Source of the DNA: JAGLHV01 sp023132075 [NCBI: bacterium]
GTDB lineage: Bacteria > CBDUZB01 > JAGLHV01
Length of the DNA: 5,198 nt
Assembly: GCA_023132075.1 (NCBI GenBank)
Contig: JAGLYT010000124.1
Location: forward strand, 1-5,198
Reading direction: 5' to 3'
Shown here: positions 1,174 to 2,811 of the stretch, piece after piece
How positions within the stretch are numbered: position 1 is the stretch's first letter
Layout: every line of letters begins with the position of its first letter
The notes under the pieces: generated by a model
Seen by the model: only the letters and a program-made list of their open reading frames with translations
Told to the model about the DNA's origin: nothing
The model's database searches: none
Made by a program: the position numbers and the translations under genes

Positions 1174-1881
1174 GTGGAAAATATTAGAGAAAATGTAGAG
1201 AAAATTTTGAGTGAATTGCCGGAAGGGATAAAGTTAGTAGGGGCGGCAAAGACAAAAACAGTGGGGGAGATTTTAGAAGCAATAGATGCCGGGGTAGAAA
1301 TTATCGGAGAGAATTATATTAGGGAAGCGGAAAAGGTAATTGAGCAGATAAAAAAAACAGAATTTGGAATAAATAATGATGCGAATAAAAAAATATGTGC
1401 GGTAAAATGGCATTTTATCGGACACTTGCAAAAAAATAAAGTAAAAAAAGCGGTTAAGCTTTTTGATATGCTCGAAACTGTGGATTCTTTCAAAATAGCC
1501 GGAGAAATTGATAAAGAATGTAGAAAAATAGAGAAGGTAATGCCGGTATTACTGGAAGTAAATAGCGGCAGGGAAAAACAGAAATTTGGTATATTTCCGG
1601 AAGATGTGGAAAATTTAGTTAGGGAAATTTCTTTATTTGATAATTTAAAAATAATGGGCATAATGACTATGGGTCCCTGGGAAGAAGATGCTGAGGTTTT
1701 GCGTCCTTATTTTAAAGAGACAAAAAAAATATTTGAAAAAATTAAATCGCTTAACTTAAACAATGTTCGGATGAAATATCTTTCGATGGGAATGAGTAGT
1801 TCTTATCGTGTTGCTCTGGAAGAAGGGGCGAATATGATACGAGTGGGAAGCAGAATATTTGGTGAAAGAAATTATCAATAG
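1174..1881 (+). CDS. yggS: YggS/PLPBP-family pyridoxal phosphate homeostasis protein
   Basis: A 235-residue single-domain protein of the YggS/PROSC/YlmE (UPF0001) family: a TIM-barrel fold like the N-terminal domain of alanine racemase that binds PLP but has no known enzymatic activity and helps keep vitamin B6 and amino-acid pools balanced. The PLP lysine is K26 in VGAAKTKTV. Other signatures are HFIGHLQKNK (80-89), EVNSGREKQKFGI (from 128), IMGIMTMGPW, SMGMSSSY (204-211, phosphate-binding region) and IRVGSRIFGER (from 222). Length is normal. Between the helix ending near residue 60 and the WHFIGHLQ strand there is a somewhat long polar insert (about residues 62-77). Start is GTG with a good ribosome binding site. 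It lies 41 bases after def and 14 bases before the small Cys-rich gene, consistent with one transcript. In many bacteria this family sits near cell-division or proline biosynthesis genes; that context is absent here. Confidence 0.94.
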   Translation: MENIRENVEKILSELPEGIKLVGAAKTKTVGEILEAIDAGVEIIGENYIREAEKVIEQIKKTEFGINNDANKKICAVKWHFIGHLQKNKVKKAVKLFDMLETVDSFKIAGEIDKECRKIEKVMPVLLEVNSGREKQKFGIFPEDVENLVREISLFDNLKIMGIMTMGPWEEDAEVLRPYFKETKKIFEKIKSLNLNNVRMKYLSMGMSSSYRVALEEGANMIRVGSRIFGERNYQ

Positions 1882-1895
1882 TAAAAAAGATTATT

Positions 1896-2051
1896 ATGTT
1901 TAAAATTTTAGATGACTTATGGTTTAAATTAAAATCATTTTTAGGTGGAACAAAGTTTTTATGCGATTCCTGTCGGTATGATTGGGGAGATGCCTGTACC
2001 AGGCCCGAGAGGCCTAATGCAACAAGGTGTCCTGATTATAAAAAACGATAA
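1896..2051 (+). CDS. Small Cys4 protein, possible zinc-binding (unrecognised)
   Basis: A 51-codon ORF starting at ATG 1896, 14 bases after the yggS stop. I do not recognise the family. The N-terminal half is hydrophobic and basic (MFKILDDLWFKLKSFLGG), likely an amphipathic helix. The C-terminal half holds four cysteines, C23-x2-C26-x7-C34-x10-C45, within FLCDSCRYDWGDACTRPE followed by RPNATRCPDYKKR, rich in Arg, Asp, Pro and aromatics. This spacing looks like a small metal-binding knuckle (zinc or Fe-S), and the sequence ends in a basic tail that could bind nucleic acid; both are inferences. Evidence that it is real: it fills what would otherwise be a gap in a tight gene string, its composition is protein-like, and the overlapping other-frame extension (1945-2097) of the next gene is dispensable. 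The Shine-Dalgarno is weak (AAAAAAGA at 1883-1890), so translational coupling to yggS is possible. Confidence 0.72.
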   Translation: MFKILDDLWFKLKSFLGGTKFLCDSCRYDWGDACTRPERPNATRCPDYKKR

Positions 2052-2085
2052 AAAACAGAAGAGTTTAAAAGTAGTTGAATTAAAA

Positions 2086-2092
2086 AAGGGGG
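2086..2092 (+). promoter_or_regulatory. Ribosome binding site that decides the radical SAM start
   Basis: AAGGGGG lies 5 bases before ATG 2098. The in-frame GTG at 1945 is inside the small Cys-rich gene and has no purine-rich site at proper distance, so this site marks ATG 2098 as the start. Confidence 0.75.
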
Positions 2093-2097
2093 AAAAA

Positions 2098-2811
2098 ATG
2101 AAAATAGTGATAAAAGGTTTTATTGAGACTTCCTTAGTTGATTGGGAAGGAATGATTGTTTCCACATTATACGTGCCTTATTGTAATTTCAGAGGCCCTT
2201 TTTGTCAAAATTCCGGATTGATACTTAATCCTGAACAATATGAGACTATTCCGGTAGAAGATATTATGAATTATTTAATCAAGCATAAAGGATGGATTGA
2301 CGGGGTATGTTTGACCGGAGGTGAACCCTGTTTATACGAAGATGTAATTGATTTTATTGAAAAAATTCGGGGAATAGGAATGAAATTAAAACTTGATACC
2401 AATGGTACTTTCCCTAAAGTTTTGCGTAAAATAATAGAAACGAAGATGGTAGATTTTGTCGCTATGGATATTAAAGCCCCTTTGGAAGAAGAGGCATATA
2501 GTAATTCGATAGGGGTAAAAGGTAAAAAAATATTAGAAAAAGTTAAGGAAAGTATTAATATTCTTATGCATTCGGATATTGATTATGAATTTAGAACAAC
2601 GGTAGTTCCTTCTTTGCACGAAAAAGACGATGTGTGTAAAATTGCTCAATATATAAAAGGAGCAAAAAGATATGCTTTGCAAAATTTCGTTCCTCAAAAT
2701 ACACTGGATCCGGAGTATATGAAAATAAAACCTTATGACAAAAGCGAGATGGATGAAATTTATCGTGAGGTTTTGCCTTATGTAAAGGAATGCCGGATGA
2801 GAGGGGTATAA
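2098..2811 (+). CDS. Radical SAM protein, NrdG2-like; middle cluster Cys reads Gly
   Basis: A 237-residue protein resembling the radical SAM activators of anaerobic ribonucleotide reductase (NrdG2 type), which install a glycyl radical on a partner enzyme. Matching features: an N-terminal IKGFIETSLVDWEG (family form is like GG-x-x-x-x-SLIDYPG), a cluster region YCNFRGPFCQN (28-38), TGGEP (73-77, SAM binding), LDTNG (99-103), MDIKAP (123-128) and a C-terminal QNFVPQNT like the QxFxP segment of the family. The cluster motif should be C-x3-C-x2-C, but residue 33 is Gly (codon GGC at 2194-2196), leaving C29 and C36 only; TGC would differ by one base. Either this copy cannot hold a normal 4Fe-4S cluster, or the base is a sequence error. 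No nrdD or other glycyl-radical partner is in the window, so the substrate is unknown. Start at ATG 2098 has a strong ribosome binding site; a GTG reading from 1945 would overlap the small gene in another frame and add 51 residues unlike the family. Confidence 0.82.
   Translation: MKIVIKGFIETSLVDWEGMIVSTLYVPYCNFRGPFCQNSGLILNPEQYETIPVEDIMNYLIKHKGWIDGVCLTGGEPCLYEDVIDFIEKIRGIGMKLKLDTNGTFPKVLRKIIETKMVDFVAMDIKAPLEEEAYSNSIGVKGKKILEKVKESINILMHSDIDYEFRTTVVPSLHEKDDVCKIAQYIKGAKRYALQNFVPQNTLDPEYMKIKPYDKSEMDEIYREVLPYVKECRMRGV

What the first reader, a model, noticed from the sequence alone, without database searches (positions are those of the whole stretch)
1896..2051. Overlooked 51-residue Cys4 protein between yggS and a radical SAM gene
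An ATG-started frame encodes a basic protein with C-x2-C-x7-C-x10-C and a dense, protein-like motif (CDSCRYDWGDACTRPE, then RPNATRCPDYKK). It sits inside the stretch that a naive gene call would assign, in another frame, to an N-terminal extension of the radical SAM gene, so automated annotation could miss it. I do not recognise the family. A metal-binding partner or scaffold for the adjacent Fe-S chemistry, or a small nucleic-acid-binding protein, are speculative roles.
Basis: partly seen in the sequence, partly recalled or inferred. Interest (0 to 1): 0.6.

Follow-up and report, generated by a model that had tools for sequence, protein, structure and literature searches.

The report
Widespread unnamed four-cysteine mini-protein family
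The tiny overlooked gene is real and belongs to a widespread, unnamed family of four-cysteine mini-proteins found in many bacterial groups, and in some cyanobacteria what looks like the same four-cysteine piece sits inside the sensor domain of the kinase NblS, whose sensing mechanism is still unknown.

Summary
The 51-residue frame at 1896-2051 is a real gene. Among three species of its genus it looks under purifying selection (pN/pS 0.08-0.17), while the competing frame at 1945 does not and stops early in both relatives. Relatives occur in many phyla: of 77 sequences (75 loci, the window, L004), 76 keep C-x2-C-x7-C-x10-C; 26 of 386 sampled bacteria match, one of them doubtful. No Pfam, NCBIfam, PHROG or PDB family fits. 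Among the 75 loci, yggS and radical-SAM neighbours occur only in the two same-genus ones, so a radical-SAM scaffold role is not supported. Eight of 77 members have hydrophobic membrane-type stretches; short forms carry a basic N-terminal helix, so I infer a Cys4 metal site at the membrane. New lead: cyanobacterial relatives carry a zinc ribbon and tail anchor and lie tail-to-tail near nblS in 13 of 22 genomes holding both; 17 of 386 cyanobacterial genomes carry the module inside the PAS region of NblS itself. Metal, fold and function are unproven; both structure models were poor.

The parts
1896..2051 (+). 51-aa Cys4 mini-protein gene (stop included)
1902..1943 (+). residues 3-16: tentative N-terminal helix, basic/aromatic; presumed membrane-surface anchor
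   Evidence: helix H3-16 in a low-confidence model; helical moment of residues 1-16 exceeds shuffles at p 0.038, best 11-residue stretch of 1-21 only at p 0.25
1953..2048 (+). residues 20-51: conserved Cys4 core, consensus about FLCD[ST]C[RK]Y[DN]Y..AC.RPERPNAT.CPDYK
   Evidence: alignments A3, A4
1962..1964 (+). Cys23 codon (presumed ligand 1)
   Evidence: invariant
1971..1973 (+). Cys26 codon (presumed ligand 2)
   Evidence: invariant
1995..1997 (+). Cys34 codon (presumed ligand 3)
   Evidence: invariant
2028..2030 (+). Cys45 codon (presumed ligand 4)
   Evidence: invariant
1945..2097 (+). competing frame (false N-terminal extension of the radical SAM ORF)
   Evidence: broken in L002 and L003; substitution pattern against it
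1174..1881 (+). upstream neighbour, YggS family PLP protein
   Evidence: TIGR00044
2098..2811 (+). downstream neighbour, NrdG2-like radical SAM protein
   Evidence: TIGR02495

Best explanation
A conserved small protein made of a membrane-binding N-terminal helix and a ~28-residue cytoplasmic Cys4 module that binds one metal, most likely zinc, and serves as a small protein-docking or redox/metal-responsive module at the membrane surface. Shown: the gene is real, usually single-copy, under purifying selection in its genus and widespread; the Cys4 spacing is nearly fixed; several lineages have hydrophobic membrane-type stretches in its place or in addition; a module of the same spacing is found inside the PAS region of the membrane kinase NblS in some cyanobacteria, and a tail-anchored relative is often encoded near nblS. 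Inferred: metal binding, membrane attachment of the short forms, orientation, and a role in sensing or in docking to membrane regulators. The role in the window's own organism cannot be named from gene context.
For: Homologues in 78 reported loci, 75 used (L083 and L087 truncated, L088 a spurious radical SAM match); spacing C-x2-C-x7-C-x10-C in 76 of 77 sequences including the window and L004. Profile hits in 26 of 386 bacteria, one doubtful, the window's genome and two sister species included; 20 of 40 and 12 of 14 genomes of two other phyla, chosen because a member was already known there. One match per genome in 26 of 26, 20 of 20 and 11 of 12. Hydrophobic 19-residue stretches in 8 of 77: N-terminal in L041, L065, L070, L071; C-terminal in L078, L084-L086. 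Over all 77, segments before the first Cys average net charge +3.3 and 3.8 W/F; helical moment above shuffle at p<0.05 in 23 of 69 short forms. Upstream gene on the same strand in 63 of 70 against 358 of 476 for other neighbour pairs; 11 with 1- or 4-base overlap. NblS: in 17 of 386 cyanobacterial genomes a 707-789 aa ORF carries the module; all 17 are NblS-like, 66-74% identical to an NblS without insert, with the insert at the corresponding place; L160 passes NCBIfam NF045911 NblS (1115.9 against cut-off 1000). Profile A3, which holds no zinc-ribbon cyanobacterial form and no NblS, scores the 17 proteins 13.8-31.7 bits; the best of 7000 shuffles of the first 7 inserts reached 9.8. The small gene is tail-to-tail with nblS, the two matches starting 1.1-1.7 kb apart, in 13 of 22 genomes holding both.
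Against: AlphaFold models of the whole protein and of the core are poor (mean pLDDT 58.4 and 58.2), so fold and metal geometry are unseen. Amphipathicity of the short forms is only moderate: 46 of 69 do not beat shuffles at 0.05, and the window's own helix is borderline (p 0.038 or 0.25 by choice of stretch). No conserved partner gene outside cyanobacteria was found. In cyanobacteria 9 of 22 genomes have the two genes apart, and tail-to-tail neighbours are not co-transcribed; the 13 cases come from related genomes, not independent events, and I looked for intervening genes only in L005/G049 and L251/G750. Most NblS lack the insert: 22 of the 29 sequences read. In 13 genomes with the module no NblS passed the 1e-30 cut, which need not mean absence.
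Confidence: 0.5

Rival explanations
1. The four cysteines hold a [4Fe-4S] cluster, as in HiPIP-like small subunits of glycyl-radical enzymes, making a redox-active membrane-surface module.
For: One CxxC pair plus two lone cysteines resembles the HiPIP-type order (recalled, from no call); aromatic residues at 28 (118 of 124 Y, W or F) and 48 (nearly invariant); the window neighbour is an NrdG2-like activase.
Against: None of the 67 members of A3 matched a family named as Fe-S in Pfam or NCBIfam at E 0.1 (two weak hits to DUF2284, 'predicted metal-binding'), nor did A3 find an Fe-S chain in PDB sequences; the activase neighbour is limited to this genus among the loci seen; in cyanobacteria it follows a zinc ribbon.
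Confidence: 0.25
2. A small zinc-binding nucleic-acid-binding or ribosome-associated protein.
For: Basic and short; downstream of HflX-type GTPase genes in five Bacillota loci (L014 scanned, the rest by clustering); def lies in the window gene row and two genes upstream in L063.
Against: Context differs by lineage; membrane-type forms and the insert in a membrane kinase fit poorly.
Confidence: 0.12
3. Partner or scaffold of the adjacent radical SAM protein.
For: Adjacent in three species of the genus; that radical SAM protein lacks the middle cysteine of CX3CX2C in all three.
Against: No relative of that protein among the gene calls of the other 73 of 75 loci (some loci are short).
Confidence: 0.04
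4. The NblS insert is an unrelated zinc loop that converged on the same spacing.
For: Only ~27 residues are shared; most inserts lack the RPN triplet.
Against: Identical cysteine spacing in 17 of 17 (by a pattern search, but each was first found by profile), and scores above all shuffles with a profile that holds no cyanobacterial zinc-ribbon form.
Confidence: 0.2

Closest known systems
NblS (Hik33/DspA) PAS-region insert of some cyanobacteria
   Same: C-x2-C-x7-C-x10-C-x2-[YF], mostly with R-P before the last Cys; membrane-kinase context
   Different: Part of a 700-790 aa kinase, sequence around the cysteines more divergent, no N-terminal helix of its own
Cyanobacterial zinc-ribbon + Cys4 + tail-anchor protein (120 aa in L084-L086, unnamed)
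   Same: Same Cys4 module, membrane-type stretch
   Different: Extra N-terminal zinc ribbon (L085: PF13248, 20.1 bits, below its cut-off of 27), anchor at the C-terminal end, N41 mostly Tyr
Haloferax one-domain zinc-finger micro-proteins (PMC10716476, PMC6562870; search listing and abstract starts only)
   Same: Under 70 aa, four cysteines, presumed single zinc
   Different: Those described in PMC10716476 have two C(P)XCG motifs; here one CxxC and two lone cysteines, plus a possible membrane helix
HiPIP-like small subunits of glycyl-radical enzymes (recalled, from no call)
   Same: CxxC then two lone cysteines
   Different: Longer spacings (recalled); no sequence match here

Membership tests
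This new Cys4 mini-protein family | C-x2-C-x7-C-x10-C | tested here: met
   window protein and 75 of 76 other sequences; L072 has x6
This new Cys4 mini-protein family | N-terminal helix or transmembrane anchor | tested here: inconclusive
   hydrophobic stretch in 8 of 77; amphipathic helix only moderate in the rest
Two-knuckle zinc ribbon / CPXCG micro-proteins | two CxxC knuckles | tested here: not met
   a single CxxC
Any Pfam or NCBIfam family | score above curated cut-off | tested here: not met
   no family for the window protein at E 1; for the 67 members only weak hits, Pfam families in at most 5 members with best E 0.0015, NCBIfam one member each with best E 0.021
HiPIP-like Fe-S small subunits | bound [4Fe-4S] cluster | not testable with these tools
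   needs purified protein; no sequence match
NblS histidine kinase (for the large ORFs) | NCBIfam NF045911 above 1000 bits; HAMP-PAS-HisKA-HATPase | tested here: met
   only L160 (with insert, 1115.9) and L167 (without, 1180.9) were scanned; the other 16 large ORFs by 66-74% identity to L167
Mobile-element or phage protein | copies on phages, plasmids or viral contigs | tested here: not met
   no match in the three collections

The most novel reading that the evidence does not exclude
A ~28-residue Cys4 metal module is a portable redox or metal input device used at bacterial membranes: stand-alone and membrane-tethered in many phyla, encoded beside nblS in many cyanobacteria, and in several cyanobacterial families built into the PAS region of NblS, where it would supply part of the kinase's uncharacterised redox sensing, with the tail-anchored protein supplying it in trans elsewhere.
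Probability: 0.2. Interest if true: 0.85.

Novelty: new variant of a known kind. Interest (0 to 1): 0.6.

Why it matters
It adds an unnamed, strongly conserved mini-protein family found in many bacterial phyla and unmatched in the family libraries searched. The shared module links it to NblS, a global regulator of photosynthesis genes in cyanobacteria. A 2026 review (PMC13421787, passages read) says the exact redox-sensing mechanism of NblS is uncharacterised and that its PAS domain has been proposed to take part. Point changes in four cysteines would test the link directly.

Tried and rejected
Function by neighbourhood: clusters of neighbours are lineage-specific. A first longest-ORF gene caller gave what look like antisense ORFs in GC-rich loci and was replaced by one scored on codon composition; both are my own and unbenchmarked. 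Weak Pfam hits (IBR_1, PHD, DUF4428 and others, best E 0.0015) are scattered over at most 5 of 67 members and were not followed. PDB profile hits at E 0.81 and 1.7 are chance-level zinc fingers. Fold search was not run because both models are below pLDDT 60. Of the weak hits L005-L010, L005 proved real (cyanobacterial); the frames at L006 and L008 lack the four cysteines; L007, L009 and L010 are reported with stops inside and were not read. In one search the partial hit G240 and (the same genomes, core profile: 27 of 386) the partial hits G152 and G159 are not counted as members; (38 of 146) G523 is likewise a partial hit.

Print: no paper in the open-licence library holds the family's peptide strings (its three hits, all for one short string, have unrelated titles). 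One search returned nothing. The listings (13 of 13 papers; 15 of 17; 20 of 1,630, hardly any on NblS) show no title or abstract start about a Cys4 insert in NblS; only PMC13421787 was opened, by passages. So absence from print is weakly tested. The table and the insert spacing come from pattern searches that require the cysteines; carry the spacing claim for the family.

Full report
OBSERVATION. The window holds, in order on the + strand, thi4 (cut at its start), def, yggS, the 51-aa frame, an NrdG2-like radical SAM gene and metE. The frame starts at ATG 1896, 14 bases after yggS ends, and encodes C23, C26, C34, C45 as described. The GTG-started frame from 1945 runs into the radical SAM gene in the window; in L002 and L003 (same genus) it ends after 40 codons, and the radical SAM gene starts at an ATG matching window 2098. 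Pairwise pN/pS in frame 1896 is 0.119, 0.082 and 0.174; in frame 1945 it is undefined (0 synonymous, 4 nonsynonymous), 2.4 and 1.8. Counts are small (6 to 12 differences per pair), but all point the same way.

A WIDE FAMILY. One scan of the genome collection gave 78 loci. I dropped L083 and L087 (cut at contig ends) and L088 (a radical SAM protein matched by chance), leaving 75, plus the window and L004. Their record titles name Sumerlaeota/BRC1, Planctomycetota, Hydrogenedentota, Armatimonadota, Zipacnadia/WS1, Firestonebacteria, Bacillota, Chloroflexota/Dehalococcoidia, Nitrospirota, Omnitrophota, Aerophobetes, Methylomirabilis and cyanobacteria, among others. The search patterns (FLCD[ST]CRY or PNAT[RK]CPD, either one sufficing) bias the set toward parts of the motif, but neither pattern asks for all four cysteines. 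Spacing is C-x2-C-x7-C-x10-C in 76 of 77; L072 has x6. In the 67-row alignment A3, L22, C23, D24, C26, C34, R39, P40, N41 and C45 are invariant. A3 leaves out L004, one duplicate (L022) and the eight forms with hydrophobic stretches. A3 found 26 of 386 genomes sampled across bacteria, the window's own and two sister species included; one (G240) is a partial match I do not trust. It found 20 of 40 and 12 of 14 in the phyla of two hit genomes. Genomes had one match each in 26 of 26, 20 of 20 and 11 of 12. The phage, plasmid and viral-contig collections gave none. Pfam, NCBIfam, PHROGs and PDB sequences give no credible match.

GENE CONTEXT. In 63 of 70 loci the upstream gene is on the same strand, against 358 of 476 for other neighbour pairs in the same loci; 11 overlap by 1 or 4 bases. 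The downstream gene is on the same strand in only 42 of 72 (my own simple gene caller; related loci are not independent). So it is usually co-directional with the gene before it and often, though not always, the last of its unit. The upstream gene changes with lineage: HflX-type GTPases in Bacillota (L014 scanned), an SH3 protein in Planctomycetota (L028 scanned), an AraC-type regulator in Hydrogenedentota (L053 scanned), a pilin-like protein in Sumerlaeota (by eye). Relatives of the window's YggS and radical SAM protein appear only in L011 and L012. Context therefore names no partner outside cyanobacteria.

ARCHITECTURE. 69 of 77 members are 47-64 aa. Over all 77 the part before the first cysteine averages +3.3 net charge and 3.8 W/F residues. 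Eight have clear hydrophobic stretches: N-terminal in L041, L065, L070 and L071 (two helices by eye), C-terminal in L078 and L084-L086. In each arrangement the Cys4 module could face the cytoplasm (inference). I read the short forms as bound by an amphipathic helix, but the test is only moderate: 23 of 69 N-termini beat their shuffles at 0.05 (about 3-4 expected), mean z 1.4; the window helix gives p 0.038 (residues 1-16) or 0.25 (best 11-mer). AlphaFold models reach only pLDDT 58.4 and 58.2, so I draw nothing from them beyond a tentative helix 3-16.

THE NBLS LINK. In cyanobacteria the module lies between a zinc ribbon and a C-terminal hydrophobic stretch in a protein of about 110-125 aa (120 aa in L084-L086). 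In some genomes an ORF of over 700 aa also matches. With the core profile A4, 82 of 386 cyanobacterial genomes match at 0.001, and 17 large ORFs of 707-789 aa appear (A4 contains one NblS insert, so it is not independent). I read all 17: each aligns with an NblS without insert (L167) at 66-74% identity, and each carries the module at the corresponding place, after the strand R-[IV]-x-[LV] and before KGIA-x-T-x-QDI or close variants. L160 passes NCBIfam NF045911 (NblS), its match broken there; L167 passes it unbroken. Profile A3, without any zinc-ribbon cyanobacterial form or NblS, scores all 17 at 13.8-31.7 bits, while 7000 shuffles of the first seven inserts reached at most 9.8. In the 146-genome sample 30 matched the NblS query at 1e-30, 7 with insert; of 29 sequences read, 22 have none. 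Of the 22 genomes with a separate small gene as well, 13 have it tail-to-tail near nblS and 9 do not; 8 had no separate small gene found. G750 (L251) is a further tail-to-tail case. Of the 17 insert-bearing genomes, 12 also have a separate small gene and 5 (G413, G425, G516, G643, G659) do not at that threshold. The genomes are related, so the arrangement may be one old event that was kept. Many species have an NblS without the insert.

MECHANISM. I commit to a membrane-surface Cys4 metal site, most likely zinc, serving as a docking or redox/metal-responsive element. Shown: gene, conservation, membrane-type stretches in several lineages, presence in NblS. Inferred: metal, membrane attachment of the short form, sensing or docking. 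The main rival is a HiPIP-like iron-sulfur cluster. A 2026 review states that the exact redox-sensing mechanism of NblS is uncharacterised and that its PAS domain has been proposed to take part (PMC13421787, passages), which makes the insert worth testing.

NOVELTY. Small Cys4 proteins are a known kind; this family, its distribution and its presence in NblS are not in the libraries searched, nor in the paper listings seen (open-licence papers only, mostly titles and abstract starts, so an existing report could be missed).

Noticed in passing
window 2098-2811: The NrdG2-like radical SAM protein has C-NFR-G-PF-C where CX3CX2C is expected (middle Cys is Gly), also in L002 and L003 of the same genus. 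It may not bind a normal cluster.
   Followed up: partly
L035 5763-5963 and the matching gene of L038: A 62-66 aa protein with CPFC...WCPHFIG lies directly upstream of the Cys4 gene in two Sumerlaeaceae loci; the L035 copy has no Pfam match.
   Followed up: no
L159 (G566): Second, divergent copy (LCFHCLEEAEERCRLPERPFARRCIAY) in an 84-aa frame of a genome that also has a normal copy.
   Followed up: no
L084-L086: In these loci the tail-anchored gene follows a Der-like GTPase gene and a TIGR03792-type gene (L084 scanned) rather than nblS. L086 is titled Gracilibacteria but its genes resemble those of the two Hydrococcus records, so it looks mis-binned (by eye).
   Followed up: partly
G413, G425, G516, G643, G659: Five of the 17 genomes with an NblS insert show no separate small gene at E 0.001, as if the insert replaced it; the other 12 keep both.
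   Followed up: partly
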